Origin: Peronospora farinosa | Taxonomy: Eukaryota > Oomycota > Peronosporomycetes > Peronosporales > Peronosporaceae | Assembly: GCA_947646735.1 (NCBI GenBank) | Contig: CANTFK010000868.1 | Location: 62,001 to 126,000 of the forward strand | Direction of reading: 5' to 3' | Length of the DNA: 64,000 nucleotides | Shown: positions 5,286 through 54,357 of the stretch, piece by piece | Position numbering within the stretch: position 1 is the stretch's first letter | Layout of the letters: each line of letters begins with the position of its first letter | Made by a program: the position numbers and the translations under genes | Notes under the pieces: generated by a model | The model's database searches: none | What the model was told of the DNA's origin: nothing | Seen by the model: the letters and a program-made list of their open reading frames with translations, nothing else

Positions 5286-7051
5286 ATGGGAAAGGAGAAC
5301 TTGTTGAATTTTCTTTCATTCAACAATTACGCTATGACAAAGTCAATGCGCGTCGCTGCTAAGGCAGCCAAGAGCTCGGCTGCACGCCTGTGTGCAGCCG
5401 CTACTGAGGCTTCACAGCCTCAGCCAGCAGACACTAATGTGTCTGCTGGAAGTCAACATCAGCCTGCAACGCCTGTTGCAGGTTCACGTAGCGCTTCGCC
5501 ACGTGAAGATGTTGACCCAGAGTTAGTCGTTGACTACTCTGGTGAGTCGGATGACGCATCCGGCTCAAAGTCACCTATTCCACTCCCGGGCTCTCCTCGG
5601 GGTGATATCTCGTCGTCTAATGCTACGAAGAGGGATCGTGGTACATTGAGTGAATCAATGTACCGTGAAATGCTCGGGTCGTCTGATGAATCAGACGACT
5701 CGCCAAACGAGTCGAAGGATAGTGACTCGGGTGGGGACCGTAAGGGTGATGTCAGTGCTTCTACTGACATCAATGCTCATAGTGTCGGTACTTTTGTTGA
5801 CACTAATGCTCGTGGTGTTGGTACTTCTGTTGACACCACGCAGGAGTCTTTAGACCGCAACGTATTGCGTCTTGCTCCTGATCGCAAGCCATGGATGCTA
5901 CCTAAGCATCTGCTTGATCGTTGGTCTGGAAAGACCAACGAACGGTTTCCCATACCGTTGTTTGATGCGTCAAAGCTTCATGGCCTTGACGCCAGTGCGA
6001 AGAACTTTCGCACTGAGAACGATTATTACATCGATGTGTTTCTTGAACATCGATGGTATGGCCCACACAAGAAGCGTGAGGCTGACGCGTTCCTCCAATA
6101 TTGGAACGCGTTTATCACCAACGTTTTAAACGTTGGGAAAGAGGCTTGGTTTCAAAGACTTTATGCTAGCCGCAATAAGTTTGAGAAACGAAGTACTTCC
6201 GGTGCATGCTATCGTTTGCACCGGTTATCTAGAGAGGCAGGCCTGTTATGCCTCTCTTGGGGCGACCCATGCCCGCGGTGCCTGAGCACCTCGTCAAGAG
6301 CGCCTAAGGAGGCGTACCTCCTTACTGAGCCTGGTGGAGGGCTCGCATCTCTTCCGAAATGCGTGAAGGGATTGCTACTTTGCAATCCCTTTACGAACGC
6401 GCTGAGCGCTCGTTTTCCGATGGTCCTTCACCATCGGGTGTCCCTTGTCGTACTGTTCGACAAGGCCGGGAACGTCGGCCATCAGTTGGGCCCAAGGTTC
6501 CCAGCTATCCGCCGAAGGCGGATAGCCACGCCACCGGACAAGATAACTCGTCCGACGTCCCTTCACCTCGCCGTGCTTTAGTAAGCGTTCCACGAGGAAG
6601 CGCTTCCCACCATAGGAGTCCACCAGCGGATGCGGTGGTGGAGGGAAAACCCTGTCCGATTCTTTCATCGGACTTGTCTGCTGAGTTAGACGGGTTTGCC
6701 CGTGTAACTCGTGAGCTCCGTTGTGATGTTGATCACGAACGGGATAAGCGTCGCCGCTTAGAGGACATTGTGCGACAGCTTGGGTTTGGCCATGAGAGGT
6801 CTCGGGCAAACAATGCTGTCGCACTATTGGAGAATGAACGGCGACTTCATTCTCTAAGTATCGAGCTGGCAACAGCTCGTCAGTAGATCGTCCAATATCA
6901 TGGGACGATCTCATCTCTACACGACCAGATATCGAATCTGGTTCGTGACAACAAGAATCTGAAGGGGATTCTTGAGAGTAATGGCTATCTTCGTCGTTCG
7001 AAGATGCCGCGTACTGAACGTACGGACGAAGACGTCCCACGTAAAACGTAG
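5286..7051 (+). pseudogene. Antisense gene of family A (aORF), copy in A1
   Basis: The ATG at 5286 lies 48 bp inside the 3' LTR, on the strand opposite to gag-pol. The first frame stays open to 6581 and has an Ala/Ser/Asp-rich N-terminus, then at about residues 190-320 a Trp-rich domain (KPWMLPKHLLDRW, FLQYWNAFITN, FQRLYASRNKF) ending in LCLSWGDPCPRC. Around 6310-6360 the likely frame changes to one open from 6359 to 6886, with a basic linker and a long coiled coil (RVTRELRCDVDHERDKRRR..., ALLENERRLHSL). A TAG at 6884-6886 interrupts the coiled coil, which goes on in frame to 7049 (the same part is uninterrupted at 40317-40563). The last ~680 bp overlap the pol C-terminus. The layout (Trp domain, CxxC, basic region, coiled coil) matches the B-family gene at 45613-47094. 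Function unknown; a Gag-like or nucleic-acid-binding accessory role is only a guess. Confidence 0.7.
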
Positions 7052-25303: not shown

Positions 25304-26265
25304 GTGTCAATGAGGAGGTACAACAAGCACTAATTGTGCTCCTTGACGATGACACTATCGTGTTATCAACAGCGTCGACCCATGACCGACCTCTTGGAGG
25401 TGTCATAGGCGAGTTGGATGCTAAAAGCGTGAGCGAAGCTCAGCGCTTTGTGGATGAGCGATTATCCATCACACGTAAAGTCCGTGACGCGATGGAACGC
25501 GCACAGAGCAAACAAAAACAATATGCGGACCGTTATAATCGCAAAAAGAATGAACACTTAAGTGTTGGGGACAAAGCGCTATTAAGTACTGCTACCCTAC
25601 CTAAAAATGCAATTTCTGTACTACCTGGTGGTACTACTAAGCTGTTACCCCGATTCATTGGGCCCTTTACAGTGGTTAAAGAAGTTGGAGACCTAAATTA
25701 TAGGCTCACTCTCCCACCGTATATGAAGAAGCACCCCGTATTTTACGTGGGTCGTCTGAAACGGTATGTGTATCCACAAGAGATCACATATCCGCATCAG
25801 TCTAACTATACCGATGGTGACGTCGACTGTGAGTCAAGCGTCGTTGCCGATCAGGCGACGGGAAAGGTGAACGACTTCTCGTTTACGAAACATATGACAG
25901 AGGACTTGGTGATTGAGGAGAACTCCGCTTTTGGCGCGGGTCTCTCATCATCAGCCGCTCCAAAATATTAAACGAAGTCCCAGGCGGTCATTTATACTCC
26001 TGACGATATTTCGTCCTCACATCTCGTAGATCCGAAGTCAGTCGCGAGGCTTGACTCAGAAGATCGACCACCTCTCCCTTTAGCGCATCTTTCTCCACCT
26101 GCGACTGAACAACCGCAGAGTAGGCAGCCGCGAGTAGTTGGGCGTAATCGCCACTCCTATCGGGCGCTACCTGTGTTGGTGGATGCGGGTGGGTACACAC
26201 GCTTCCTTGTTGGTAGGCTGTTGGCCCATCGCCATGTGAAGCAAAAGCTTCACATCCTTGTCTAA
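25285..26265 (+). pseudogene. C2 integrase C-terminal barrel and chromodomain start
   Basis: 25285-25971 carries YADRYNRKKNEHLSVGDKALLSTATLP and LLPRFIGPFTVVKEVGD...HPVFYVGRLKRY. Past the TAA at 25969-25971, another frame (about 26140-26265) reads ALPVLVDAGGYTRFLVGRLLAHRHVKQK, the beginning of a chromodomain like that of family A (KRFLVERLLKHGEVKGR), ending at TAA 26263-26265. The C-terminal half of the chromodomain is missing. Confidence 0.7.
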
Positions 26266-27273
26266 CGAAAAGAAAACCTTAGCCCTTTGACTTTAAGGAA
26301 CTGGTTGACGCGTTGCGCGTCTACGTGCTTTGGCTGAGGGATGCTTAGAGCAGAAGCACCAGATGCACTCGCTCTGCTAGGTCCTGATGGCCTAGCAGTG
26401 GCGGCGTGACGAGAAAGATTTAAGGGTAATTTACCGCCTAAAATTTTTTGCACGCGTCATAGTGAAGCTGACACGCTGCGACCGCTGTTTCATTGCATCT
26501 TCATATAGTTTAAACGACGCAGGACCTCTGCTTCGTATTCGCCGGTTGTTTCGTTAGAACGCAACAGGGAAAGCACGACCTAGTGCTTTACCCTGCCTTT
26601 TCATGATAAAAAGACGCTCAATAGTTTATTAGCATCCATAGTGGCACGCTTTAGGATCGTCGCACTATTTACACGCTAGCGTTGTCACTCGGATGGTGGT
26701 GGCATTCGGTGGCAATCCAACACTCATGTAGTCTCCCTCGCGACGTCGTGCCAATGAGGCCGACTGTGAAGTCGAAGGAGCTTTTAGCTCACACTCGCTG
26801 AGTCTGATACTACATTATAGATTGTCAAGACTGCAGCCGTAGATTTGACATAGTCGGGCGATTTACAATTGCCGACCTGCTGTTAAGACGCGGCTGTTTT
26901 TCGAAACAGCGCGCTCATAAGTGGTCGCTGCGCTCGTCGGGGCAGACGACGAGGATGACCTCACTGTAGGTAAGCATGGAAGCTTTTTGAAGGTTGGGTG
27001 TCTCAAATGATGGGGTGATATGCCCATCAAACGCTGTGATCATCACCACTTTGGGGTGATGGAATTGGCGTAGTCTACAATGAGAGACATATCCTTATCC
27101 GCACACTAGTGGAATGGTTCAATGATCTCTTCTAACAAGCTGACATTAGATGTTGGCGTTGTCACAGAGACACTTAGCGACGGCTGCGAATTATCGCGGC
27201 GCGTGCGCTTTGTGACGGTCTACATGGGCGCCTTTGCAGGCGACCCATCATCCTTACCACGCTTCGGTGGCAT
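25988..27273 (-). pseudogene. Antisense gene of family C (aORF), degenerate
   Basis: On the minus strand an ATG at 27273, 53 bp inside the 3' LTR, opens MPPKRGKDDGSPAKAPM before a stop. Further on, 26453-26262 and 26200-25988 are open in pieces; the last is a coiled coil (AYSAVVQSQVEKDALKG, LLSQASRLTSDLRDVRTKYR). Start position, strand, convergent overlap with the end of pol and a C-terminal coiled coil are as in families A and B. The Trp/Cys domain is not recognisable in the decayed middle. Confidence 0.5.
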
Positions 27274-34745: not shown

Positions 34746-34792
34746 CCTGGTAGCACTTCGTGGTCCGTTCAGCGACCACCGCACCTCCCGCT

Positions 34793-36000: not shown

Positions 36001-36018
36001 GGGCGGAGCGCCCTACTG
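35979..36018 (+). promoter_or_regulatory. Predicted -1 frameshift signal, gag-pol junction of A3
   Basis: AAAAAAC at 35979-35985 in gag phase (TCA AAA AAC). A 9-nt spacer GGTCGGGGT follows, then CAGTAGGG (35995-36002) pairing with CCCTACTG (36011-36018). The gag TAG is 35998-36000. The -1 frame is open from the heptamer straight into the protease frame. A AAA AAC is a classical retroviral slippery heptamer. Confidence 0.78.
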
Positions 36019-36050
36019 ATCCAGCAACGTCAAGAGAGTTCGCGGGACTC

Positions 36051-38261: not shown

Positions 38262-39910
38262 TGCAATATGATACAGACGGCGCCGAGCGTGTCGTCTGTT
38301 ATCAATCGCGTCAGCTGCAACCGGCCGAGCGCAATTACCCGGTGCATGACAAGAAACTCCTTGCCATGAAGTATGCACTGGCTAAGTTTCGCGTCTATCT
38401 CTTAGGAGATAGACCGTTCATTGTGTATACAGACCATGCTTCACTACGCAAGGCTGTAAACAGTCCACACCTCTCGCAACGAATGGCGAGATGGTTGTCA
38501 TTCTTCGCGGAGTACAACTTCTCCGTGGAGTATAAGCCGGGACGACTTAACGTCGTCGCCGATGCTCTCTCACGTCGGCCTGACCTAGAGCCGACAGTGC
38601 AATTCGACAGTGATGTGGACACCACTGTCGCCACGCTGAGTACTAGCGTCTTGTCGTCGAGCTTACTCGACGACATTATAATGGCATGCGCACAAGATAA
38701 TGATCTTGTACGCCTGATGGAGTATCTCAAGGACCCATCCACGCAAGCTAAGAAGCGCTTGCCTGCCATGTATCGATCTTCTATCGATCGATACACCCAG
38801 CGGTACGGCTTGCTGTACTACACAGCCGTCAACAACGACACGCCTCGTGTCGTTGTACCGCCACAACATGATCTCAGGTTACGGATCATGTTTGAATGTC
38901 ACGATGCACCAATAAGTGGGCATCGCGGCCGTGAGAAAACTTACCTCACGGTCAGTCGCGACTTTTACTGGCCACGCCAGTATAAGTTTGTGCGCAAGTA
39001 CGTGCGTGCTTGCGAGGTGTGTCAACGAGTGAAGCCTAGTCCTTCACTCCGTGCACCATTGCAGCCTCTACCTGTTCCGGCAGAGTGCTGGGAGTCCGTA
39101 TCAATGGACTTCGTCTTTGGGTTTCCCAAAGGCGCTCACGGGAATAATGGTATTCTCGTGTTTGTGGACAGGTTCAGCAATATGGTACATCTTGTTGCTG
39201 TACCTGAGTCGATCACAGCAGAGGGCTGTGCTCGAGTGTTTATCGATACAATCTTTCGATTGCACGGTTTACCCCGTGAACTTGTGTCCGATAGGGACCC
39301 CCGGTTCACGGCTGAGTTTTGGCGTTCCGTGTTCCAAACACTTAGAAAACGGCTCACAATGTCTACTTCTGACCATCCAGAAACTGATGGTCAGACTGAA
39401 CGCGCCAATCGCGTCCTCGAAGAGATTCTTCGAGGGTACGTCCACTCGTTTACGAGTTGGAGTGAGTTCTTGTCGATGGTCGAATTCGCCATCAACAACT
39501 CAGTGCATGCTTCCACGACACATACACCATTCTACGTGAATGGCCTTCGCCATCCACGTGTCCCCACCTTAGTAGAGGATGACTCTAATTTAAGGGGGGG
39601 GACTCGCTCGAGCGAGAACCAATCTGGCTCTTGCTCATCACGCGACGACGTTATGGTCGACGCGAAAGTAACCGAAGTCGTACCATTCGACTTCGGTGAA
39701 GAGGAAGAAAGTAAGAGCGATGACGCTCTTACTGATAACGATGCTGAAGATATCAGCATCGTTCGAGGTATCACAAGTGAGAACAGTATTGTTCTCGCTG
39801 AATTAGTAACCGATATCTCTACAGTGCACTCACAATGCACTGCAGCCAAAAGCAACGAGTCAGCTAAGGATTTCCTGCTGACTCGTGAAGCGGTAGTCCG
39901 TTTCGTGTAA
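38261..39910 (+). pseudogene. A3 RNase H-integrase (549 codons open)
   Basis: The frame overlaps the previous stop and starts at GCALMQYDTDG. RNase [42 protein letters not shown]; the N-terminal strand with the first catalytic Asp (CDAS in families B and C) is missing. Integrase: CHDAPISGHRGREKT...CEVCQRVK zinc fold, [43 protein letters not shown] homopolymer G tract near 39594-39601 differs in length between copies. It ends VVRFV then TAA at 39908-39910, which A1 and A4 share. Confidence 0.85.
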
Positions 39911-40313
39911 GACTCCATCGCAGAAGCGGTGGATAAGCAAAAGCGAAACGCAGACAATAATGGAAGGGCAAATACTCAAACATTTATTGAAGGTGATTTG
40001 GTTTTACTGTCAACAGTAAACCTAAACATGTAGTGACTAACGTGGGCAGCAATAAATTGTTGCCCAAGTACATCGGCCCGTTCCGTGTATTGCGCCGCCT
40101 AGGCAACGCATACACGATCGAGTTGCCACGCAGGATGCGTACGCATCCTACGTTTTACGTGGGACGTCTTCGTCCGTACGTTCAGTACGCGGCTTCTTCG
40201 AACGACGAAGATAGCCATTACTCTCAAGAATCCCCTTCAGATTCTTGTTGTCACGAACCAGCTTCGATATCTGGTCGTGTAGAGATGAGATCTTCCCATG
40301 ATATTGGACGATC
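39911..40313 (+). pseudogene. A3 integrase C-terminal barrel
   Basis: After the TAA: DSIAEAVDKQKRNADNNGRANTQTF (frame continues), a small frame break near 40025, then [55 protein letters not shown]. The protein is cut at the junction; the continuing frame to 40563 runs into the antisense strand of A4 and encodes its coiled coil (ALLENERRLHSLSNEL). Confidence 0.75.
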
Positions 40314-40397
40314 TCCGGCAAACAATGCTGTCGCACTATTGGAGAATGAACGGCGACTTCATTCTCTGAGTAACGAGCTGGCGACAGCTCGTCAGGT
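40314..40397. other. Centre of a 12-kb inverted fusion of A3 and A4
   Basis: Left arm ...GGACGATC ends at 40313 and right arm GATCGTCC... begins at 40398; positions on the two sides sum to 80711. The 84-bp spacer belongs to A4 only (it matches A1 6808-6890). Confidence 0.9.
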
Positions 40398-40801
40398 GAT
40401 CGTCCAATATCATGGGAAGATCTCATCTCTACACGACCAGATATCGAAGCTGGTTCGTGACAACAAGAATCTGAAGGGGATTCTTGAGAGTAATGGCTAT
40501 CTTCGTCGTTCGAAGAAGCCGCGTACTGAACGTACGGACGAAGACGTCCCACGTAAAACGTAGGATGCGTACGCATCCTGCGTGGCAACTCGATCGTGTA
40601 TGCGTTGCCTAGGCGGCGCAATACACGGAACGGGCCGATGTACTTGGGCAACAATTTATTGCTGCCCACGTTAGTCACTACATGTTTTAGGTTTACTGTT
40701 GACAGTAAAACTCAATCACCTTCAATAAATGTTTGAGTATTTGCCCTTCCATTATTGTCTGCGTTTCGCTTTTGCTTATCCACCGCTTCTGCGATGGAGT
40801 C
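40398..40801 (-). pseudogene. A4 integrase C-terminal barrel
   Basis: Mirror copy of 39911-40313: KLLPKYIGPFRVLRRLGN...YVGRLRPYVQY (40660-40520), preceded by DKQKRNADNN. Confidence 0.75.
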
Positions 40802-42452
40802 TTACACGAAACGGACTACCGCTTCACGAGTCAGCAGGAAATCCTTAGCTGACTCGTTGCTTTTGGCTGCAGTGCATTGTGAGTGCACTGTAGAGATATC
40901 GGTTACTAATTCAGCGAGAACAATACTGTTCTCACTTGTGATACCTCGAACGATGCTGATATCTTCAGCATCGTTATCAGTAAGAGCGTCATCGCTCTTA
41001 CTTTCTTCCTCTTCACCGAAGTCGAATGGTACGACTTCGGTTACTTTCGCGTCGACCATAACGTCGTCGCGTGATGAGCAAGAGCCAGATTGGTTCTCGC
41101 TCGAGCGAGTCCCTCCCCCTTAAATTAGAGTCATCCTCTACTAAGGTGGGGACACGTGGATGGCGAAGGCCATTCACGTAGAACGGTGTATGCGTCGTGG
41201 AAGCATGCACTGAGTTGTTGATGGCGAATTCGACCATCGACAAGAACTCACTCCAACTCGTAAACGAGTGGACGTACCCTCGAAGAATCTCTTCGAGGAC
41301 GCGATTGGCGCGTTCAGTCTGACCATCAGTTTCTGGATGGTCAGAAGTAGACATTGTGAGCCGTGTTCCAAGTGTTTGGAACACGGAACGCCAAAACTCA
41401 GCCGTGAACCGGGGGTCCCTATCGGACACAAGTTCACGGGGTAAACCGTGCAATCGAAAGATTGTATCGATAAACACTCGAGCACAGCCCTCTGCTGTGA
41501 TCGACTCAGGTACAGCAACAAGATGTACCATCTTGCTGAACCTGTCTACAAACACGAGAATACCATTATTCCCGTGAGCGTCTTTGGGAAACCCAAAGAC
41601 GAAGTCCATTGATACGGACTCCCAGCACTCTGCCGGAACAGGTAGAGGCTGCAATGGTGCACGGAGTGAAGGACTAGGCTTCACTCGTTGACACACCTCG
41701 CAAGCACGCACGTACTTGCGCACAAACTTATACTGGCGTGGCCAGTAAAAGTCGCGACTGACCGTGAGGTAAGTTTTCTCACGGCCGCGATGCCCACTTA
41801 TTGGTGCATCGTGACATTCAAACATGATCCGTAACCTGAGATCATGTTGTGGCGGTACAACGACACGAGGCGTGTCGTTGTTGACGGCTGTGTAGTACAG
41901 TAAGCCGTCCCGCTGGGTGTATCGATCGAGAGAAGATCGATACATGGCAGGCAAGCGCTTCTTAGCTTGCGTGGATGGGTCCTTGAGATACTCCATCAGG
42001 CGTACAAGATCATTATCTTGTGCGCATGCCATTATAATGTCGTCGAGTAAGCTCGACGACAAGACGCTAGTACTCAGCGTGGCGACAGTGGTGTCCACAT
42101 CACTGTCGAATTGCACTGTCGGCTCTAGGTCAGGCCGACGTGAGAGAGCATCGGCGACGACGTTAAGTCGTCCCGGCTTATACTCCACGGAGAAGTTGTA
42201 CTCCGCGAAGAATGACAACCATCTCGCCATTCGTTGCGAGAGGTGTGGACTGTTTACAGCCTTGCGTAGTGAAGCATGGTCTGTATACACAATGAACGGT
42301 CTATCTCCTAAGAGATAGACGCGAAACTTAGCCAGTGCATACTTCATGGCAAGGAGTTTCTTGTCATGCACCGGGTAATTGCGCTCGGCCGGTTGCAGCT
42401 GACGCGATTGATAACAGACGACACGCTCGGCGCCGTCTGTATCATATTGCAT
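40802..42452 (-). pseudogene. A4 RNase H-integrase
   Basis: Open from 42452 to 41013 (479 codons) with the same RNase H and integrase motifs as A3, here with FPKDAHG and DRFSKMVHL intact where A3 has changes. The G-tract difference near 41117 shifts the frame, and the last part is open at 41059-40802, ending in the shared TAA. Confidence 0.85.
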
Positions 42453-44647
42453 CAGTGCGCAGCCGATTGCATCAAGCTTTGCTTGATACGTTCAAAGGAA
42501 CGCTGACAGTCAGAGTTCCAATTCCACTTTACATTTTTCTTGAGTAAACAAGAAAGATGTACTGTCATTTCGGCGTAATTGCGCGAGTACTTGTGCAAGT
42601 ACGCCGCTAGCCCAAGGAACTTCCTTAGTCCCTTGACATCGACTGGCACTGGCCAGTCGGTGATCGCCTTGATCTTTTCTGGATCAGGGCGTACGCCGTT
42701 CTTTCCGACGATGCACCCAAGAAGTGGTATTTCGCTAGCTGCGAATATACACTTCTTGAGGTTGGCGTACAACTTATGCTCGCGCATAAGTGTAAGAACC
42801 TTACGGACGTGGAGTCTATGGACTTCCACGTCTGTTTTCCCGTCCATAGCCCGACTATGGACGAACACATCATCGAAGTAACTCGGTGCGAATTCGCGCA
42901 CCGGTCTCAATAGATGTGAAACACATCTATTGAATGTGGCTGGTGCATTACTAAGCCCTTGCGGCATCACCAACCATTCCCAGAGCATACCACTGGGAGT
43001 GCTCACTGCTGTGTACGGGATGTCCCGTTCACGCATTAGGATCTGATAGAAACCATCCATCAGATCCATGGACGAAAAGATGGTACTCTTAGACATACCA
43101 TCTATGATTACGTCCTTTCTCGGTATCGGCGTTTGCGCCGGTATCGTTGCAGCGTTCAACTTATTGAACGCGTGCACTATCCGCCACCCTCCTGTGGCCT
43201 TGCGCACACAGAAGGTCGGAGAGCTGTGAGGTGAAGTTGACTCCCTCACATGGCCCGCTGCTAGGCGATCGGCAAAGAACTTGTCGATCGCCTCGACCTG
43301 TTCCTGAGGCAGTGGCCACTGCTTCATGACACAAACAAGGTCGATCTCGTGTCGAGTACCTTTATCCATAGGTAACTTGCACGGAACGGATTCAGGGAAT
43401 ACATCCTTGAATTCAACCAAATCCTTATACAAAGGATTTGACTTCAGCGACTCCCAGGATTGCGATGTATATCGCTCAATCCGAGTCTTCTCATCAAGGA
43501 CACTCTCGTCCATTGATGAGCTGCTGAGAACCCGTTCGTTCTCGGCAAAAACTGTTGCTGACCGAATGTCAGTCATGTACTCGTCCTCTGCGACGAGCAC
43601 ACAGATCTGCTTGACTTTGCCACTACGCAGATCACGCAAGAACCTTTTAGGTTCTAGCGTAGGCAACTGAGTTATCTCCGAAGTTAACTTCGGAGGCGCG
43701 AACAGATCAAGCGTATAAGCGCCTACGTTTGATCCGTCATTAACCAAGACGTTCAACGTCTCGGTTACTTCCTGGGAACTTGTTCCCTCAGGGCACTGGG
43801 GACTTATTCCCTCAGTGATTATTTCCTGGGGACTTATTCCCGCAGGCTCGATGGAACTTGTTCCATCGACTTCCTCTAGCTGTGGTGGCGCAACCACAGC
43901 GAGATCCTCTACGATCAACTCTCCAGTTGATCTATGATTACCGTGTTGCCGCTTCTGGGCAACCGGTTTACTCTTCGGTGAATGCTGCCCTCTAGGCGAG
44001 CATTCATGTCCCGGTCCACTCGACTTATTCGAGTGGTGGACCTTCGGCGCTGCCTGTGCTTGTGCACAGCCGCCGGCAGCTTGCTCTACAGCGTGACTGT
44101 CTGTCACGCTGAGTTCTTGTGCAGTCGTACTAACGACCGAACCACAAGTGAGGCCATCACACTCACTCGTAGTACATTCACACGCTTGTGAACGCTCCAA
44201 GACGTTCATCAGATGGCCATCTGATGAACAAGCGGCAGGCATCTTCACGGTTCGATGCTGCCAGCTGACCCATGGCTCGTACCTTCTGAGCCATGGTAAT
44301 CCTAGGATGACATCAAATTTGTCATCCAGATCAAATACGATGAAATCATTATCGTACTTTTTGCCTTCAAGCGTGTAGTGAATTCCCACTACACGTTTCT
44401 TTACTGTTACGGATGCGCCCGTTGCAAGGCGCACCGACATCCTCGTTGGAGGGGTCTCGCGCTCAACATATTTGAGCCTACGATCATCTAGCGATTGGCG
44501 TCGAACAAAGTTGTTCGAAGCCCCACAATCAACTAGGGCGCGAAGTGACATGTTCTTTGTCACTTCGATCTTCAAGGTGATGAGAGATACCTCATCACTG
44601 GGAGCGGCAACACACAGTGACTGTGTGTTGGGAGCAACCCTCGTCAA
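42452..44647 (-). pseudogene. A4 protease-reverse transcriptase (731 codons open)
   Basis: As in A3, with DCGAS protease and YFDD RT. A 15-bp in-frame deletion near 43334 removes PGTKY from LVPGTKYCVMKQ, a block at the start of the RT fold that A3 and B keep. The RT/RNase H connection is missing as in the other A copies. Confidence 0.85.
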
Positions 44648-44679
44648 GAGTCCCGCGAACTCTCTTGACGTTGCTGGAT

Positions 44680-44827
44680 CAGTAGGGCGCTCCGCCCCTA
44701 CTGACCGTGATATCGAACGTCTTGGTGGTCACTTCCCTCACCTCCCCCCTCTCCTCCGTAGTAGCTGGTACTTCCTCGTTAAATACAACCTTCTTATTAC
44801 TCCCTCCCCCCCCCCCGACCGTTTTTT
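44680..44827 (-). promoter_or_regulatory. A4 frameshift signal split by a ~108-bp insertion
   Basis: Slippery AAAAAAC is at 44827-44821 (minus). The stem-loop with UAG (44703-44680) is intact but now about 117 nt away instead of 9. The insert ends in a C10-C11 run on the plus strand (44805-44817), and I do not recognise its source. Confidence 0.65.
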
Positions 44828-45258
44828 GATGGTCCACCACGTTGTTGCGATTTCGCAGCAACGTGGGACCCACGTCTCTGGCCCTTCTTGGCAGACGGTC
44901 GATCGTCACTCCCAGTGTTACGAGACACTGGGCGTGGGGCACTACACTCATAAGCGTAGTGGCCCAACTTCTGACAGCGATTGCACTTTTGCAATCGCTT
45001 GTACCCTAGGAGCGAGGTCGCTCGCTCTCTACATAGGAGAGGTCCATTGGTTCTGGACCTCCGCCCTCCTGTCGTCTCGGTGGACGATAGGATCCCGAGT
45101 GGACGTGAGCCTGTTGTAGGCTAAAGTCCTCCTGTTCCGCTGCAGAGATCGCTTGATCCAGCGAATCTAGCTATAAGCGGAACAGGTGGGTCTTGACAGG
45201 ACCATCGGTCAGACCCTTGATGAACACAGTAACCTGCGTGTGTTCATCGATTAAGTTC
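44797..45258 (-). pseudogene. A4 gag C-terminal part with zinc knuckle
   Basis: CNRCQKLGHYAYEC at about 44990-44950 and the upstream QAHVHSGSYRPPRRQEGG part. Both stops shared with A3 are present (TAG near 45009 and near 45172). Element B begins at 45259 in the gag codons that read TVFIKGLTD / DEHTQ in other copies. Confidence 0.75.
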
Positions 45259-45599
45259 TGTAACGGGGCTAGAACGTACCGTCACTAGCTTACACGTGCG
45301 CTTGAAGAAGACTCAAGCCCAAGTATTAGGTATTAAGTAAATTTAACTCTGATTTTTATTTTGGTTTTAATTCGTACTAATTACGAAGATTTTAGTCGTA
45401 ATAAATACGACAGTGTTCCCGCCTTTCGGGAACCACACCATTTCAGGTGATTTATCATTGGTCCATATTGGGGACTTTAGGCCCAATAATGAACCAATAA
45501 TAAATTACCACGCTGTGCCCGCTATTCGGGCCCAGCACCTGCCTACATATGTAATTGTTTATTTGTGTTAATACTATATGTGTAATGTAGCCCATTACA
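45259..45599 (-). repeat. Family B 3' LTR (341 bp)
   Basis: TGTAACGGGGCTAGAACG...GTAGCCCATTACA on the plus strand, matching 52772-53112 apart from scattered single changes. A polypurine tract (GAGAAGGGGGTGA on the minus strand) abuts it at 45600-45612. Confidence 0.92.
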
Positions 45600-45612
45600 T
45601 CACCCCCTTCTC

Positions 45613-47094
45613 ATGACAGCACTCACCAACCGTGAGTGCTCAACTGTCGGAACCCCTTCGCCCACAAACGAACAAGCAATGTCCGGAGACCCAAAACTCA
45701 ATCCAGCAGAACGCCCAAGATACATCAGCGGGAATGCATCAACCAGCATCATGGCGCGGCAGCTCATACCTTGGTCGCTGTACGACTTGTCCGGAGCTCA
45801 CGCTCCGGACTCACTGGACATGATGCGAAACTACTTCCGCCGATTTCGAAAACTGCGCGGGAAAGGTCTTGATGGAATCGAGCATGAAGCTCTACAACGT
45901 TCTTGGTGCGCCTTCATCCAACGTTGGAATCGGATGCTCGAGGATGGTAGCAGCTTCCAGTTATGGCTCGCCAATCGAGAGGAGCTTCGCGCCGATCACT
46001 CCATCGGCGCGCTACGCGAAAGAGTGTGTGAGGATGCTTGGAATGAGGACCGTCTCTGCTTCGTCCATGTCAATGAAGGATGCCAATCTTGTGACTCGAC
46101 TCCACGCCCAACTCATGACGAATGGCGACGACACATCGCTGAGTGTCCACTCAGTGATCGCGAACGAAGTTGGATTGCAAAGTATGAGCGAAGTCTGAGC
46201 GAACGGAGAAGCGCAGTTATTCGTGGTGCGCCTCGCTGGCAGCACCACTCGCGACAGCGGAGTCAATCTCCGCGGGATCATCAGCGCAGGGCAGCGACAC
46301 GTTCGCTTGTCCGTCCTGCTTCGCGATTCTCGCCTCGCAATCGTGATATGTATTCACCGCGACGTTCTCGTTCACGGCGTCGTTCTCATTCGCGACATCG
46401 TTCTCGTTCACGGCATCGTTCTCGTTCGCGACATCGTTCTCGTTCGCGTCATCGTTCCCGTTCCCGACGACGTGAATCTCCTTACCGCTCTCGTTTGTCA
46501 CGAGAGCGTTCGCGTGCTCGCCCGCCTTGGAATAGTCCGACTTCGTGGCTTCATACGACAGAACCACATCTGGAACGTCACGAAGGAGCGAGGAACGTGG
46601 TTCCCATGTATCCTGCTCGGGAGGGAATCCAAGCCAACGTACTCGGTACCTACGCACGGATGAAACCGCACGCTTGTCATGAGCCGACTGCAGTAATGGT
46701 TGTGGAGGGTCCTCGTGACCCACAATGCGGTCTACAATCCATCGCACCTGTCCCTCCGCATCAACAAGCGGAGGAGGGCCCTCGCGGTGGTAGAGCTGGC
46801 GTCCTGGTTGCTCAGGACGATGTTGATCAGGCCGTGAATATAGCTGCCGATGCTCGGCTGGAGGCTGAGGCTGCCAGTGAACGTGCTGCCCAGGCGGAGA
46901 AGACTTCGAGTGAGACCCGGCAGTCGAACCGTGAACTGTTCGAGCGGATAAGGATTCTGGAGCGCCAGATGCTTGGCCAGGTTCAGACGGGATCGAGACC
47001 CCGCCCCATGTCATCGGCGCGTCGAGCACGACGGGAAGGTCGTTCGACTTACGAACCCCTGAAGCCGGCGTCGGAGCCAAACCGTGAAGAGTAG
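45613..47094 (+). CDS. Antisense gene of family B (aORF), 493 aa, intact
   Basis: The ATG lies 14 bp inside the 3' LTR, on the strand opposite to gag-pol, and the frame is fully open. Residues about 55-200 form a Trp/Cys domain: [50 protein letters not shown]...[15 protein letters not shown], then H...H...C ([11 protein letters not shown]), which could bind zinc. Residues about 215-310 are Arg/Ser-rich with RSRSRH repeats. Residues about 400-465 are an Ala/Glu/Arg-rich coiled coil ([41 protein letters not shown]). The last 878 bp are antisense to the pol C-terminus. The layout recurs in A1, and the Cys domain recurs in F. Plant Tat-type Gypsy elements also carry antisense genes of unknown function; I see no clear identity with them. 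An RNA-binding or Gag-like accessory role is inference. Confidence 0.75.
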
Positions 47095-50000
47095 CCGGAC
47101 GATATTCCTTCAGCCGCCCGACATAGAATGTCGGGTGGAGTCGCAGTGAAGAGGGGACGTCGAGTGTATAAGCGTCGCCAATTGCCTTCAGAACCTTGAA
47201 TGGACCGATGAAGCGTGGCGCGAGTTTACTCGCGCCCAGATTAGTGACCGCAGAATCCCTTAAACCTTTCGTAGATAATAATACACGGTCACCTTTCTTA
47301 AACTTGCTCATGTTCTTTCTTCCATGTTTGTCAGCGTTCTCCTTCTGTTGGTCTACAGCAGTTTGTAGTGCGTCGCGTACAAACCGGGTGATGGTTTGAC
47401 GTTGGAGTATAAATTCCGACACGGCCATGTCATCAATTGGTCGCGCCGACTCAATCGGCGCGTAGTTGGCAGTAGGGGAACGCTTACCCGAAGACGGGTC
47501 AATCAATGTCTGCGCAGTCCATCGAGCTAATGGGGACGCCACGTCTGATGGCGTCAAAATGGCCGTCTTTGCCTTGGATCGGGTTACTGCATTCGCGCTC
47601 AAAATACCGTGAGCTGCACTCGATCCTTGTTTATCACCTTTATTCCCCCCCAGAGTGGAGCCACTAGGTGTTGTGGGTCGCCCCACGGCCAAGACAGTAG
47701 GAACACGAGGGTGACGAGCCGAATTCACAAAAAATGGTGTCAACCCTGTTGACGCGTGTACGGCGTTGTTGAGTGCGAACTCAGCGAGTGGTACAAATGC
47801 ACTCCAACTTGTAAATGACGTAGCATAACTCCGAAGAACATCTTCGAGGACTCGGTTCACGCGCTCGGTCTGCCCATCCGTTTCCGGATGGGCTGCCGTC
47901 GACATCAGCAGTTTTGTCCCGAGGAGCTCGAAAAGTGATGTCCAAAATGCGGACGTAAATCGCGGGTCACGGTCCGAAACAATGTTTTCTGGAAGGCCAT
48001 GATGACGGAACACCGCGTCGATGAAGTGCGCCGCGGTCTCTGCCGCGGAGACCTTAGCGTGAGCAGGCACGAGATGTGTCATCTTGCTGAATCTGTCAAC
48101 AAAGACCAAGATGCCCGTTCGAGCTTGGCTATCGGGCGCAAGCCCGAAGATAAAGTCCATCGAAACTGATCTCCAGGCCTCTGCTGCAATTGGCAACGAT
48201 CGCAAGGGAGCCTGTGACGATGGAGATGGCTTCACACGCTGGCATATTTCGCACGTTCGGATCCAGTTGCGTACCCACTTATACATGTGGGGCCAGAAGA
48301 AGTCTCGAGACACAGCCGCGAAAGTCTTTTCGCGGCCTAAATGGCCGCCAGCAGGAGCATCGTGATACTCGTGAATGATTCTTGCACGCAAATCCATGTC
48401 ATTGGCAATCACCGTGCGAGGAGAGTCGAATTGGTCGATGCTATACAGAAGCAAATCGCTATCTAAACTGTATCGATGAATATGGTCGCGCTTGGTACGG
48501 GATAATGCTCCCAGTGCAGCATCGCTGGGAGCACGCAGATACTCGATAATGTCTGCATAATCTGAGTCACCCTTGTACGCTGCGACGATCTCATCAAATA
48601 AACATGGCTCGGGTGTAACCCGAGTTAAGTTCAGCGATACACACATTGCACATCGGTCATCATCGTCCTCGTCATCAGTAGCCTGGCGACTCAGAGCAGT
48701 CCGAGGATCGTAGTCGGGACGTCGTGACAAGGCGTCAGCGAGAATATTAGTATTGCCTGGCTTGTAATGCACGACGAAGTTGTCCTCAGAAAAGAATGAG
48801 AGCCATCGTGCCATCCGTTGGGACAGGTGTGGGCTTTTCATCGCTGTGCGCGGCGATGCATGATCGGTGTACAAAGCAAATGTACGTTCACCAAGGAGAT
48901 GCACGCGAAACTTGATGAGTGCATAGCGCATCGCTAATAACCCCTTGTCGTGAACCGGATAATTCTTCTCAGCTGGCTTCATCTGTCTCGACTGATAACT
49001 CACGACTCGTTCATGGCCCTTATCATCAAATTGCATGAGGGCACAACCGATTTCAAAATCACTAGCATCGCAAACCACGTGGAACGGATTGGAGTCGTCT
49101 GGTAGTACTAGGACTGGCGCTGACGCTAGGCTCTTCTTTACTGCTTCGAAGGCTTCTTGGTGCTCGGGACGCCACAACCACGTGGCGTCTTTCTTCAAGA
49201 GTGACGACAAAGGCTGGATAGAACCAGCATAATCCTTCGTATACTTGTGCAAATAATTAGCCGAGCCGAGCCACTGGCGCAACTCCGTAGGGTTCTTGGG
49301 CGTGGGCCAAGAACAGATGGACGACACCTTCTCTGGATCAGCTCGAACTCCCGATTTACTCACATAGCAACCTAACACCGGAATCTCCGGTGCACAAAAG
49401 ACACACTTCTTGAGATTCGCGTACAACTTGTTGTCCCGCATAACTTGAAACACTTGCTTCAGGTGTTGAAGGTGAACTTGGACATCGTTGAGGTTGCCCT
49501 CGGCGCGACTATGGACGAAGATATCGTCAAAATAACTTGGGGCAAAGTTCCGAAGAGGTCTCAACACTTGAGACACCATGCGATTGAAAGTGGTCGGAGC
49601 GTTCTTCAACCCTTGTGGCATTACCAGCCACTCCCATAACATGCCACTCGGGGTGCTCACCGCGGTGAGTGGGATATCGCTCGGTCGCATCAAAATCTGA
49701 TAAAAACCATCGGTTAAGTCGATGGCACGGAAGATGACGCTTCCTGACATGAAATTTAGCACCATGTCCTTCCTAAGAATAGGCGTTTGTGCAGGAATGG
49801 TGGAATCATATAACTTATTGAACGCATGCACTATCCGCCAGCCTCCCGTAGCCTTCTTCACGCAGAAGGTTGGACTCGAATGTGGTGAGATACTCTCCCG
49901 CACATGACCCGCTTTGCGGCGGCCTTCAAAGAATGCGTCAATAGCTTCGACTTGATCTCGAGGCAACGGCCACTGCCGAGTCACACAATACTTCGACCCT

Positions 50001-51652
50001 GGCACGAGATCAATCTCGTGCCGAACACCGCGGTCCGCAGGAAGTTCAGCCGGGATCTTGTCCGGGAACACGTCTGCATACTCACGAGCAATGTCGTAGA
50101 CGGGGTTACCAGACTCTCGCAGGGCCTCCCATGACTGTGATGCAAACCTTTCTTCACGCGCAGACTTCGGCTCAGCGCTTCGAGGACGCGCCATATGCTC
50201 CACGTTTGCCACGGTAACCACCTCGTTGGTGATTAGACACACTTGTTCCACAGTGCCTCCCTTAAGGTCACGTAGGAAATGCTTCCAGGAAAGCCATGGA
50301 AGGCTTGTAATGGAGGACGCGTGACGAGGAGGACTCTCGACCTTGATATATTGGCGCCTTTGTGGACTCCCTTCCACGTACACGATAGCGTGGACACATT
50401 CCAACGCTAAATTCTCGGTGCTGTTGTCCCCATCGTGCTTCGAGTCACTACTCGAAGCTGGCGAGCCGCAGTCAGGTGGTAAACCATCACCCCCCTCTAG
50501 GCACTGGATGTCGTCATCCAAGATGCCGGAAACACTGGACGGGAGTACCCCAAACTCGACTGTCGACACTTGATGCGGGATCTCCTGCTCGGCCGCCGTA
50601 AACCCGTGTGGGAGCCCCTGCTCAACCACAGTATGCCCATGTGGGAACCTCGGTTCGACCCCAGTGGGTGATGATGGGAACCCCGGTTCGACCATCATGC
50701 TCTCGCGTGGGGACTCCTGTCCTTCCACGTTGTACTCGTGTGGGAGCCCCTGCTCGACCACAATATGCCCATGTGGGAACCTCGGTTCGACCACAGTGGG
50801 TGATGATGGGAACCCCGGTTCGACCATCATGCTCTCGCGTGGGGACTCCTGTTCGTCCACGTCACACTCGCTGGCGATCTCTTGCTCGTCGCCACAATGC
50901 CATTGTTGGAGCCCCTGCTCGACCACAATAGGTGCAGATGGGAACCCCGGTTCAACCACTGCATTCACGTGCGGGAACCTCTGTTCAACCGCATTAATGA
51001 CGCGCGGGAACCCCTGTTCGACCGCGTCGTCCTCGTCGTCCTCTTCGCTCTGTAGCGAGGAGTCACTGTCACTTGTGTCTCGAAGAACAGCACAAGCAGT
51101 GCAGAGAGGGCCATCGCTCGCTCTGTGCACCGCCAACGTCGTGGAATCACGATCCACGACTGTGACGTTCGGCCAGTCACTTGGAGATACCAAGAGATGG
51201 GTAAACACTTCACTGACATCGAGCTTGCGTCGACGTCTCACTGATCTGGCTAACCAGTCGATCTGGGGCTTATAACGTGCCAACCATGGCATGCCCAGTA
51301 TGCAATCGAATGCATAATTCATTGCGATCACCAAGAAATCATCATTACTGCGAAAGCCATCAAACGTATACGGCAACGACACTTCGGGCCGCGATACGCG
51401 GTGTGGTTTCCCGTCAGCCAACTTGACGACGACTTGGCCAGGTCCCTCACGGACCTGAATGCTGGGAGGCAGCATCGACAAACAAGATTCACGAAAGAAA
51501 TTGTTTGTTGCTCCTGAGTCCAGGAGTGCTCGCAGAGGTCGCCGGACGCCGGCGACATGTAAACTGACAATAATCAGACGTGAATCACCACTCGTAGTGG
51601 TGGCATTTAACCGTGCGCGTAGCGCAGGAGGACTGGAAGATTGGGCTGCCAC
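46217..51652 (-). CDS. Family B pol: protease-RT-RNase H-integrase-chromodomain (1811 codons)
   Basis: The first codon listed is GTG; the frame is open upstream to the slippery site at 51712, so translation probably enters by -1 frameshift from gag. Protease: [14 protein letters not shown] and [12 protein letters not shown]. Linker: VEPGFP/VEQGLP repeats (about 50560-51030). [53 protein letters not shown]. RNase [42 protein letters not shown]. Integrase: [17 protein letters not shown]...[49 protein letters not shown]; barrel [11 protein letters not shown]...[12 protein letters not shown]. Chromodomain: [11 protein letters not shown]...[21 protein letters not shown]. The tail has NEND repeats. 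All catalytic residues I can check are present. Confidence 0.9.
46355..46485. repeat. 18-bp tandem repeat coding on both strands
   Basis: CGTTCTCGTTC[GA]CG[AG]CAT-type units, about six copies. The plus strand encodes (RSRSRH)n of the antisense gene; the minus strand encodes ([12 protein letters not shown])n at the end of pol. Confidence 0.85.
50560..51030. repeat. Coding repeat in the B protease-RT linker
   Basis: Units of about 39 bp encode VEP/VEQ-G/R-FP/LP text. A larger unit ([19 protein letters not shown]... to VVEQGLPH) occurs twice about 150 bp apart (50840-50690 and 50690-50580). The linker of families A and C also has repeats in this place. Confidence 0.7.
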
Positions 51653-51678
51653 CGGGGGACCCGGACCTCCGTTCCAAC

Positions 51679-51718
51679 CAGTAGGGCGCCCTGCACCTAC
51701 TGGTCCCGACCGTTTTTT
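51679..51718 (-). promoter_or_regulatory. Predicted -1 frameshift signal, gag-pol junction of B
   Basis: Minus strand: AAAAAAC (51718-51712) in gag phase CCA AAA AAC, 9-nt spacer GGTCGGGAC, stem CAGTAGG (51702-51696) with CCTACTG (51685-51679). The gag TAG is at 51699-51697. The -1 frame is open from the heptamer into pol without a stop. Confidence 0.8.
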
Positions 51719-52745
51719 GGACGTGCGGCCGGTACAGCACCCTCATGATGGGCGTCCACTACTTGCACCGATAATGGGGCTGGCGCACGGCACTCTGCCG
51801 CGCGATGTCCTGGCTTGCGACAACGAAAGCAAACCATTGGACGCCCGGTGCGAGCGTCACCTTTATGATGAAAGACACGTCGTCGATCATCCGGCGACTC
51901 AATCACGTCGATCTCCATAGGTTCTGGACCAGAAGGCCGGGGAACGCTTACGACCGAGGGTTTGGCATATGCCTTTGTGACCCTAAAGTCTTCACGGAGT
52001 GCGATGGCAAATGCCTCCTCCAATGTGGTAGGCTCGGCGCGCTCCAGCGATAACGGGTCTGCCCCTCACGCATACCATCCACAAAGACATTCACCTGCGT
52101 GTACATGTCCATGGGGTGCGTGATAATACACGACGCCAGATGCCTAGCCATTTGTACGTAGTCGCGCATCGCCATTTTACCCTGTCGCATCGACAGGAAT
52201 CTTGATCGCACCAGTTTCTCCTCTTGTGGTGGCTCGAAGGCAAGACGGAGATCGTCCTGGATGGTATCCAAGGTGGGGAATGCGTGCTCGTCCACAACAA
52301 GCTTACCAAGGGCCCACTTCTTGGCCTTCCTGGTGAGGCGGGAAAGAAGAAAGTTGACCTTCGCCTGTGGAGCCTCAAGAAGTCTCGAGGCGATGGCGAT
52401 ATCAACTTCTCGGAACCATCGATTCAGCGATAACCGGTCCTTACCTTCTCCAGAGTAGGAGGAGGTTTTCATCTTCACGGCCTCATTACGTGAAGGGCGC
52501 GAGGGAGTTAAGGCTCGCCGGTTAGATTCGGCGAGCTCGCGTGCCATAAACTCATGTATGGCGAGACGTTGCGCGTCAGGGGTCGCTGATCTCATCAACG
52601 ACGCGACGAATGCCTCTCCCGATATCGCCGCGAGGCGATTAAGGGCATCCCACTCAACACCAGTAAGATGGGGGAAGGTCGCGTGCTCCAGAAATAAATC
52701 TGGAGCGTCAAAGTACGACGATTCGCTCATCCCAAACTCGGGCAT
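51697..52745 (-). pseudogene. Family B gag and nucleocapsid, one frameshift
   Basis: The ATG at 52745 starts [21 protein letters not shown]. The gag domain has [65 protein letters not shown]. The frame shifts near 52045; the remainder (open 52023-51697) has the CCHC knuckle CFRCRKPGHRAAEC and ends NGRDQ-TAG. The single indel is the only defect I see in B, and could be a sequencing error. Confidence 0.82.
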
Positions 52746-52771
52746 AGGAAGGACTACAAAGTGCTACCAGG

Positions 52772-53112
52772 TGTAACGGGGCTTGAACGTACCGTCACTA
52801 GCTTAGACGTGCGCTTGAGGAAGACTCAAGCCCAAGTATTAGGTATTAAGTAAATTTAACTCTGATTTTTATTTTGGTTTTAATTCGTACTAATTACGAA
52901 GATTTTAGTCGTAATAAATACGACAGTGTTCCCGCCTTTCGGGAACCACACCATTTCAGGTGATTTATCATTGGTACATATTGGGGACTTTAGGCCCAAT
53001 AATGAACCAATAATAAATTACCACGCTGTGCCCGCTATTCGGGCCCAGCACCTGCCTACATATGTAATTGTTTATTTGTATTAATACTATATGTGTAATG
53101 TAGCCCATTACA
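52772..53112 (-). repeat. Family B 5' LTR (341 bp) with primer site
   Basis: Matches 45259-45599. Downstream on the minus strand CC then TGGTAGCAC (52769-52761), the same PBS as family A. Confidence 0.92.
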
Positions 53113-53848
53113 GGTTCAGTACGATACAGCTAACGAGGTATCGTACGTGTTGGGCGTAAGCGTGTATATCACGCTTACCCTGTTTCAAATCCAGGAGCTC
53201 AGCCCGAGCCCTGAATTCAGCGCGAGGCGGTTCAAACGTGTGTTTGAGTCGCGCCTTGAAGACGTCATACGTTGGAAAAACGTATGGGTCGTGCAGTTTG
53301 AGCCCTAAGGCCCAAGCTTTGGCACGTCCTGCCAAGTTCGACATGGCGAGCTTGACCTTCATCGCATCGTCATCGATGCGACGAGCCTCAATGGCATCGT
53401 CGAGCTCGACGAACCATCTTAACAAGGAGTCGCTTTCGACTGCCTTGTACTTGGAGACATCAATCTTCAAGGACTCGGGTCGACGTATATACGTCGACCC
53501 GGCAGCAACAGCACTAGCCTGCTGTTGTCTCAACAGTTCAGACTGTTGAGCACCCTGCTGCATCAACAAGTCAGCTTGTTGAGCGCCTTGTTCTCTCAAC
53601 AGTTCAACCTGTTAAGAACCTTGCTCCTCTAGCAAGGTGAGTTTCTTTACAACTTCGTCAAGTTCATGTTGTATGAACTTGGCTATGGTTGCATGTTGGT
53701 CGTCTCCGCTAAGGGAGAGCAACATGGCACCAACGGCAGGGTTGCCGATGGTTTCAGCCATACGCTGAACCGCATTCCATTCGAGGTCACTCAAATGGCG
53801 GAAGTCATCACGCGTTGCGTGATGACGTTCATCACCCGCTATTTTCAT
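53113..53848 (-). pseudogene. A4 gag N-terminal part
   Basis: The ATG at 53848 starts MKIAGDERHHATRDD; a TAA near 53612 interrupts the QQ.ELL heptads (LLEEQGS stop), then the gag domain reads on to the B insertion at 53113. The duplicated ATAGCGGGTGATGAACGTCATCACGC unit seen at 34797-34850 in A3 is single here. Confidence 0.8.
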
Positions 53849-53895
53849 AGCGGGAGGTGCGGTGGTCGCTGAATGGACCACGAAGTGCTACCAGG

Positions 53896-54357
53896 TGTAA
53901 TGGGGCACCCTCCGACTATACTGATTACAGTATAGTCTACTTTCACTGATTACAGTGAAAGCAGGTGCCTCAATTACCTCTCTTACACAAGAGGCAGAGG
54001 AAGCTTTACTTCTAAACAAACGCTTAGAAGTAGAGGAAAAGAAAAACTGTATTTAATATAGTTAACTATCTTAATAAAACTAATCTGTTATAACCTATGT
54101 TAACTATATTAAACTACAACTATGTATGTTGACAACTTGCCCTCCACTCATTGCGCGCGTCCATCGGTCATTGGTCAGCGCGTTGATTGATATGATGGCC
54201 CATATCAACCAATGAGAGGGCATCTCCAACTTCAAGGAGATCTAGGAACAATATTATTAAAAAGGTAATATTGTGAAAAATATTATTAGTTATAATAATA
54301 TTTTTATTGACACTTCATATAAGTGTCAATATTATGTAACGGGCTCGCCCCGTTACA
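53896..54357 (-). repeat. Family A 5' LTR of A4 (462 bp)
   Basis: Plus-strand TGTAATGGGG...CGCCCCGTTACA. PBS GTGCTACCA at 53885-53893 (minus TGGTAGCAC). The right flank ATTAT does not match the left flank of A3 (GTTCC). Confidence 0.9.

What the first reader, a model, noticed from the sequence alone, without database searches (positions are those of the whole stretch)
45613..47094. A conserved antisense gene starting at the 3' LTR in four Gypsy families
B has an intact 493-codon gene on the strand opposite gag-pol, starting 14 bp inside the 3' LTR. A1 (5286-7051, 48 bp inside), C2 (27273-25988, 53 bp inside) and F (32751-32214) have counterparts. F and B align as REE...RVC...(A/E)DR..CFVH..E, and A shares F[LI]Q.WN and LC...CxxC. 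All that reach far enough end in a coiled coil overlapping the chromodomain end of pol. Transcription could start in the 3' LTR in reverse, as for HTLV HBZ or the antisense ORFs of plant Tat elements, but the protein looks distinct.
Basis: partly seen in the sequence, partly recalled or inferred. Interest (0 to 1): 0.9.

Follow-up and report, generated by a model that had tools for sequence, protein, structure and literature searches.

The report
Antisense gene in oomycete retrotransposons
Some families of jumping genes in a downy mildew carry an extra protein gene written backwards at their tail end, partly on top of their main enzyme gene, and in at least one family selection clearly preserves it, which suggests a self-made control protein somewhat like those that some retroviruses encode on the opposite strand.

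Summary
Element B (45259-53112, a chromodomain Ty3/Gypsy element on the minus strand of a Peronospora-like genome) has an intact 493-codon gene on the plus strand, starting 13 bp inside the 3' LTR next to the polypurine tract. It is protein-coding: its unshared part evolves with dN/dS about 0.17-0.20 against two divergent relatives in the same genome, whereas four of the five other frames give at least 1. Its product is conserved in Phytophthora and Peronospora. Families A and C have open counterparts elsewhere in the genome, in the same place and the same antisense phase; their overlap with pol lacks the 5-8 stops expected. F pieces match the B profile. A-B homology is borderline, B-C undetected. 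The proteins have a helical core (A, B), basic stretches and a coiled coil; no known family or fold matched. Against an essential role in cis: 18 B copies share a frameshifting deletion of the core, and 3 of 6 B copies with a long open pol frame are among them. Best reading: a trans-acting nuclear regulator of the element, HBZ-like in layout but unrelated. No RNA evidence. Antisense accessory genes are known in plant and fungal Gypsy elements; this is a new variant.

The parts
45613..47094 (+). antisense gene of element B (aORF_B), 493 codons; an inner Met at codon 23 may be the real start in copies with a stop at codon 21
45754..46215 (+). conserved helical domain (codons 48-201), all in the part not shared with pol; includes C-x7-C-x2-C at residues 149-160
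   Evidence: alignment A1, AF2 model, dN/dS, 151 genome matches
46225..46542 (+). Arg/Ser-rich basic region (residues 205-310; 43% R+K+H, 23% S)
46813..46974 (+). predicted coiled-coil helix (residues 401-454)
   Evidence: AF2 model; Pfam alanine-zipper just under its cut-off
45259..45599 (-). 3' LTR of element B
45600..45612 (-). polypurine tract (on the element strand) between the 3' LTR and the aORF start codon
   Evidence: sequence; named by position and composition
52772..53112 (-). 5' LTR of element B
46217..51652 (-). pol of element B (protease, RT, RNase H, integrase, chromodomain), 1811 aa
46550..46681 (-). chromodomain of pol (residues 1658-1701)
   Evidence: for the residues; coordinates by arithmetic
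5286..7048 (+). aORF of element A1, frameshifted near 6332 in this copy; intact 588-aa copies elsewhere in the genome
4776..5238 (-). LTR next to the A1 aORF (element on the minus strand)
25946..27273 (-). aORF of element C2, broken in this copy; open frames elsewhere in the genome
32142..32768 (-). two pieces (32768-32376 and 32357-32142) of a B-type aORF in fragment F

Best explanation
A real protein-coding antisense accessory gene of chromodomain Ty3/Gypsy elements in Peronosporaceae. Shown (for B; position and open overlap also for A and C): it starts just inside the 3' LTR, runs tail-to-tail into pol, is kept open and is under purifying selection. Inferred: a promoter in the 3' LTR, read backwards, makes its mRNA; the product is a nuclear protein (RS-rich or KKxR-type basic stretches) that oligomerises through its coiled coil and binds the element's nucleic acid or a host nuclear factor with its helical, possibly metal-binding core, and in trans it regulates expression or RNA handling of the element, most likely restraining it when copy number is high.
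For: dN/dS of the unshared domain 0.17 (B vs L064, dS 0.91), 0.20 (B vs L065) and 0.19 (L064 vs L065), 0 of 1000 random placements as low for each; 0.22 for B vs L070, 1 of 1000 as low. Within families, synonymous excess in B (41 of 109 changes, P 0.0005; shifted frames P 0.36 and 0.74) and fewer amino-acid changes among shared than private changes in A (Fisher P 0.0025). Overlap stop-free in the same antisense phase in B, A (L041) and C (L063): 2, 5 and 0 of 2000 resamplings as low. LTR directly upstream in 30 of 30 B loci (27 at a 13-bp gap) and 30 of 30 A loci, these being the best-scoring 30 of 90 and of 103 matches. B homologues in Phytophthora and Peronospora, E 5e-154 to 2e-35; A homologues in P. 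effusa, P. matthiolae and unnamed sources; C homologues in P. effusa, P. farinosa and unnamed sources. C-terminal helices modelled at block pLDDT 55-88 (B) and 78-98 (A). KKxR near the C terminus in the 10 of 18 A-type rows that I judged to reach that end. Trans action: 18 places share a deletion of the core, so copies without it have multiplied.
Against: No RNA or protein evidence. Oomycete core-promoter motifs not found near the ATG. No DNA- or RNA-binding domain recognised. The deletion lineage shows that the gene is not needed in cis. A copies compared with old relatives give dN/dS of only 0.50-0.75; in B the private-versus-shared contrast is absent. That it restrains rather than helps is a guess from one deletion lineage.
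Confidence: 0.45

Rival explanations
1. A structural or assembly factor: the antisense protein is a second Gag-like or nucleic-acid-chaperone protein that joins particles or the integration complex, perhaps guiding nuclear entry or target choice.
For: Helical core plus Cys motif plus basic region plus coiled coil suits particle or RNA binding; trans supply would explain the deletion lineage.
Against: No capsid or nucleocapsid family was reported and no fold matched credibly, though the models are weak. A particle protein made from a separate antisense mRNA has no close precedent that I know of (recalled).
Confidence: 0.2
2. A silencing countermeasure or double-stranded-RNA device: the antisense mRNA pairs with genomic RNA and feeds small RNAs, and the protein dampens or exploits host RNA silencing.
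For: Convergent overlap of 292 codons in B by coordinates; in P. infestans small RNAs map to both strands of Gypsy Pi-1a and Albatross, and sense and antisense small RNAs of Gypsy Pi-1a were seen on blots (PMC3522703, passages read); a plant review proposes dsRNA roles (PMC7264820, passages read).
Against: Selection acts on amino acids in the part that does not overlap pol, which RNA pairing alone does not explain. Both-strand small RNAs need no special gene, and the same paper saw no bias to antisense small RNAs.
Confidence: 0.18
3. An envelope-like, movement or host-derived passenger gene with no role in the element.
For: Position between pol and 3' LTR, where env-like and captured genes sit (PMC7264820, passages read).
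Against: 151 matches of the B-type domain in one genome and counterparts in three families; conserved across genera (B). None of the 16 significant B homologues carries a functional name, so a host gene among them is neither shown nor excluded.
Confidence: 0.1
4. A chance open frame opposite pol, not a gene.
For: Repetitive coding DNA can leave long antisense frames; part of the frame is Arg/Ser repeats.
Against: dN/dS, codon-position bias, stop depletion in three families, and protein conservation between genera.
Confidence: 0.03

Closest known systems
Antisense aORFs of plant Tat/Retand-type Gypsy elements (Grande gene23, RIRE2, Retand; TRP28)
   Same: Antisense gene between pol and 3' LTR, family-wide, nuclear or regulatory role proposed (PMC11963269 and PMC7264820, passages read).
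   Different: No TRP28 match; the element has a chromodomain (Retand is non-chromovirus); the gene overlaps pol by 292 codons, and 617 bp by coordinates separate the pol stop from the LTR, against 2.9-6.6 kb in Retand.
brtn, antisense gene of Boty elements in Botrytis cinerea (Zhao et al. 2011)
   Same: Antisense gene in a Gypsy element outside plants.
   Different: Sequence not held; the paper was seen only as a citation, so kinship is untested.
HTLV-1 HBZ and other retroviral antisense proteins
   Same: Antisense gene near the 3' LTR; HBZ is nuclear (PMC11963269 passage); coiled-coil C-terminal part (for HBZ recalled).
   Different: No bZIP domain reported by Pfam; different host and element; transcript not shown here.
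Ty1 p22 self-restriction protein (recalled, no call)
   Same: Element-encoded restraint that acts in trans is the closest model for the proposed function.
   Different: Ty1 p22 is a sense-strand Gag fragment (recalled).

Membership tests
Ty3/Gypsy element with chromodomain (host element B) | Protease, RT, RNase H, integrase and chromodomain in this order, between LTRs | tested here: met
   Pfam RVP_2, RVT_1, RT_RNaseH, rve and Chromo above their cut-offs; LTRs
Antisense accessory ORF (aORF-3R) as a kind | Open frame antisense to gag-pol between pol and 3' LTR, family-wide | tested here: met
   B and A beside their LTR in 30 of 30 loci each; C by pattern in L061 and L063, with frames; not every copy is open
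Retand-type TRP28 aORF | TRP28 (PF04195) domain | tested here: not met
   No PF04195 at E up to 1 in seven A- and B-type proteins, nor at E up to 0.01 in P0142 and P0158
Retand-type TRP28 aORF | Non-chromovirus element with a 2.9-6.6 kb pol-to-3' LTR region | tested here: not met
   Chromodomain present; 617 bp from pol stop to LTR in B by coordinates
HBZ | bZIP domain | tested here: not met
   No bZIP family at E up to 1 in seven A- and B-type proteins
HBZ | Transcript initiated in the 3' LTR, antisense | not testable with these tools
   No RNA data; promoter motif scan negative near the ATG
brtn of Boty | Sequence similarity to BRTN | not tested
   Sequence not held
One gene family uniting A, B, C and F | Significant sequence homology | tested here: inconclusive
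   B-F significant; A-B borderline; A-C only a 15-column motif; B-C none
Capsid/Gag fold | Structural match to retroelement capsids | tested here: inconclusive
   No Foldseek hit at E up to 0.001 in PDB (A, B) or viral models (B only); models of low overall confidence

The most novel reading that the evidence does not exclude
One ancient antisense regulator, born before the A, B and C lineages of oomycete chromodomain Gypsy elements split, double-encoded with pol in one fixed phase, diverging too fast to align between families, acting in trans as a copy-number brake, and escaped by a deletion lineage that multiplies as a cheater.
Probability: 0.25. Interest if true: 0.8.

Novelty: new variant of a known kind. 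Interest (0 to 1): 0.6.

Why it matters
Antisense accessory genes have been described in plant and fungal Gypsy elements with unknown function. Here is a further group (oomycetes) with measured purifying selection on the unshared part in one family, the same overlap phase with pol in three families, and a natural deletion lineage. That makes the question of what such genes do testable: trans-acting brake, helper or silencing factor. It also has a practical side: these genes are deposited as ordinary proteins (one A-type 90% cluster labelled P. matthiolae has 1335 member sequences, another 524), which may inflate proteomes and gene-family studies.

Tried and rejected
Chance ORF: rejected. Oomycete core-promoter motifs INR (YCAYTYY), FPR and DPEP (definitions from PMC3599244, passages read): no INR+FPR in any of four upstream regions; one INR at 175 nt and three DPEP at 183-309 nt upstream in B, one DPEP at 527 nt in each of two C loci, otherwise none on the antisense-transcript strand; inconclusive. 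Whole-length A-B profile comparison gave a weak low-complexity match; the domain-only comparison is borderline. Fold searches gave nothing credible. Solved-structure profile searches gave three B hits up to E 1, the best E 0.0066 over 30 residues, and none up to E 0.1 for A or C. Relatives in viral contigs: none confirmed with two single proteins; genome contigs was not scanned after one search failed. A first selection count was wrong because minus-strand loci had not been turned; it was redone. Literature: no paper on antisense genes of oomycete Gypsy elements was seen in the listings (open-licence PMC only; term searches; lists partly capped). An origin shared with plant TRP28 proteins was set aside on the Pfam scans.

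Full report
What is there. The window is G000:C231:62001-126000, part of a 46.85-Mb genome in 274 contigs. Proteins deposited for Peronospora effusa match its A-type gene at 89-97% and its C-type gene at 72-94% over the aligned part, so I take it as a downy mildew close to that species. Element B spans 45259-53112: two 341-bp LTRs with 5 differences, flanked by AGTTC and GGTTC, and a 1811-aa pol with protease, RT, RNase H, integrase and chromodomain on the minus strand. On the plus strand a 493-codon frame, 45613-47094, begins 13 bp inside the internal region beside the 3' LTR, directly after the polypurine tract. By coordinates its first 201 codons are not shared with pol and its last 292 lie opposite the pol 3' end.

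Not only this copy. Searching the genome with the B protein gave 90 matches from 87 scored of 887 candidates. In the 30 best-scoring B loci, all 30 have the LTR upstream, 27 with exactly the same 13-bp gap; for the 30 best of 103 A matches it is 30 of 30, 28 of them with gaps of 44-50 bp. From the first ATG, 16 of 30 B loci are open for at least 460 codons; 9 of 30 have a stop at codon 21. In six of those nine the frame of about 460 codons after that stop was scored as free of stops, so Met23 may be the true start. For A, 11 of 30 loci have a frame of 588 codons or more, while the window copy is frameshifted near 6332. Family C, broken in the window at 27273-25946, has long frames elsewhere: 500-534 aa around several of 150 scored matches; L062 and L063 have 527 aa, and L061 is open to the end of the fetched stretch but with a different tail. 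The C protein begins at the residue that aligns with window 27273. The conserved B domain alone gave 151 matches (150 candidates scored of 598), many at 95-99% without a stop.

It is coding. (1) B against its divergent relatives L064 and L065, codons 48-201: dS 0.91 and 0.48, dN 0.15 and 0.10, ratio 0.17 and 0.20; L064 against L065 0.19. Mismatches by codon position for B-L064 are 22, 24 and 54. Of the other five frames, four give 1.0-1.4 in these pairs; one reverse frame, in which the same third positions are the degenerate ones, gives 0.31-0.35. Random placement of the same changes gives medians of 0.61-0.78, and none of 1000 was as low as observed; for a fourth pair, B-L070 (0.22), 1 of 1000 was. 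With the N-terminal part included, ratios are 0.22-0.29 for the first three pairs (up to 0.49 for pairs with L070, which is frameshifted there); in the overlap they are 0.53-0.70, as expected for double coding. (2) Within families divergence is about 2-4%: pooled ratio 0.54 in B against 0.85 and 0.96 in shifted frames, 0.79 in the B overlap, 0.62 in A (shifted frames not run for A). B has 41 synonymous of 109 changes (P 0.0005; shifted frames P 0.36 and 0.74). In A, private changes are near neutral (64 synonymous, 188 not) and shared ones are constrained (33 and 42), P 0.0025. Against this, comparison of A copies with older relatives L079 and L080 gives only 0.50-0.75, and in B the private-versus-shared contrast is absent (28 and 41 against 13 and 27). 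(3) In the overlap, synonymous resampling of pol gives 7.5, 5.2 and 5.3 stops in the phase used in B, A (L041) and C (L063); observed 0, 0, 0; 2, 5 and 0 of 2000 resamplings were as low. The phase is the same in all three; the other two phases carry 6-16 stops.

Conservation. B: 16 significant homologues among 7988 scored candidates, those with names from Phytophthora capsici, idaei, ramorum, rubi, infestans, fragariae and megakarya and Peronospora matthiolae, three unnamed. The alignment is strongest in residues of about 48-200 (YDLSGA, FRRFR, RSWCAFI-RWNRM, WL--RE, C-x7-C-x2-C). A: 135 homologues, 120 listed, from P. effusa, P. matthiolae and unnamed sources, including a 90% cluster labelled P. 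matthiolae with 1335 members. C: 15 proteins, 7 named P. effusa, 1 P. farinosa and 7 unnamed, the distant ones 46-63% identical. No Phytophthora name appeared for A (among the 120 listed) or C. Whether the genes of other species also lie antisense at an LTR could not be checked.

Are A, B, C and F one gene? A plain genome search with one F piece reached B copies only at weak E. A-B: hhalign P 0.014-0.015; 0 of 100 shuffles in one setting and 3 of 200 in another were as good. Both proteins are modelled with four successive helices before a cysteine motif, and a long C-terminal helix, but the models have low overall confidence (mean pLDDT 55.7 and 61.5) and I could not superpose them. A-C: a 15-column DPxLxVDY motif, score 25.86 against at most 25.36 in 100 shuffles. 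B-C: nothing. The pols of A and C are about 37-59% and 33-67% identical to B by segment, so the elements are kin; common origin of the antisense genes is plausible, not shown.

A natural knock-out. One fetched copy (L081) lacks 146 bp of the core domain (about residues 109-157) between two GGATGC repeats, which shifts the frame (length by arithmetic). The junction occurs 18 times in the genome (16 exact), the undeleted site 181 times, both at up to 2 mismatches. Among integrase matches (150 scored of 2642), six of the B family have a pol frame of 1800 aa or more (two further long frames at 76-77% identity were left out as another family); three of the six have the deletion junction 1.5 kb away, two have the undeleted site, one is unresolved. 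3 of 6 against 15 of 193 others gives P 0.011, a post-hoc test on small numbers that mixes two searches. So the gene is not needed in cis; this fits a trans-acting product, and it fits a brake best, but also plain dispensability.

Mechanism. Shown: coding, position, overlap, selection, spread. Inferred: a promoter in the LTR read backwards (published examples in HTLV and, with its own promoter, Grande; PMC7264820 passages); nuclear, self-associating protein; regulation in trans. The oomycete core-promoter scan was negative near the ATG, though only about 13% of P. infestans genes have INR+FPR and 18% INR alone (PMC3599244 abstract passage). In P. infestans both strands of Gypsy Pi-1a and Albatross give small RNAs (PMC3522703 passages), which is compatible with antisense transcription but not specific to this gene.

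Known or new. [quoted passage not shown] brtn only as a citation). My searches of open-licence papers showed no description in oomycetes; subscription papers were not covered. I therefore rate it a new variant of a known kind: unrelated protein by sequence, chromodomain element, deep overlap with pol, with selection measured.

Noticed in passing
34285-40316 and 40395-45262 continued at 53113-54357: Two A-family elements lie tail-to-tail as an almost perfect palindrome (arms 99-100% alike by piece, 78-nt spacer), both lacking most of the aORF and the 3' LTR; element B is inserted in the second arm.
   Followed up: partly
L081 (G000:C199:100545-101900); 18 places: A B subfamily with a shared 146-bp deletion in the antisense gene has spread, and some copies keep a long open pol frame.
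   Followed up: partly
P0043 and P0042: Deposited clusters labelled Peronospora matthiolae with 1335 and 524 member sequences are relatives of the A-type antisense protein, annotated as ordinary proteins.
   Followed up: no
45259-45599 and the LTR ends of A and C loci: The LTRs of A, B and C end, on the side next to the antisense gene, in a short palindrome of the form TGTAA...TTACA.
   Followed up: no
50577-51038: A tandem array with a 33-bp step inside pol of B, eight overlapping 132-nt copies 61-100% alike to the reference.
   Followed up: no
L006, L011, L014, L018, L019, L021, L023, L028, L030: Nine of 30 B copies have a stop at codon 21 of the antisense gene, two codons before an inner Met, hinting that translation starts at that Met.
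   Followed up: partly
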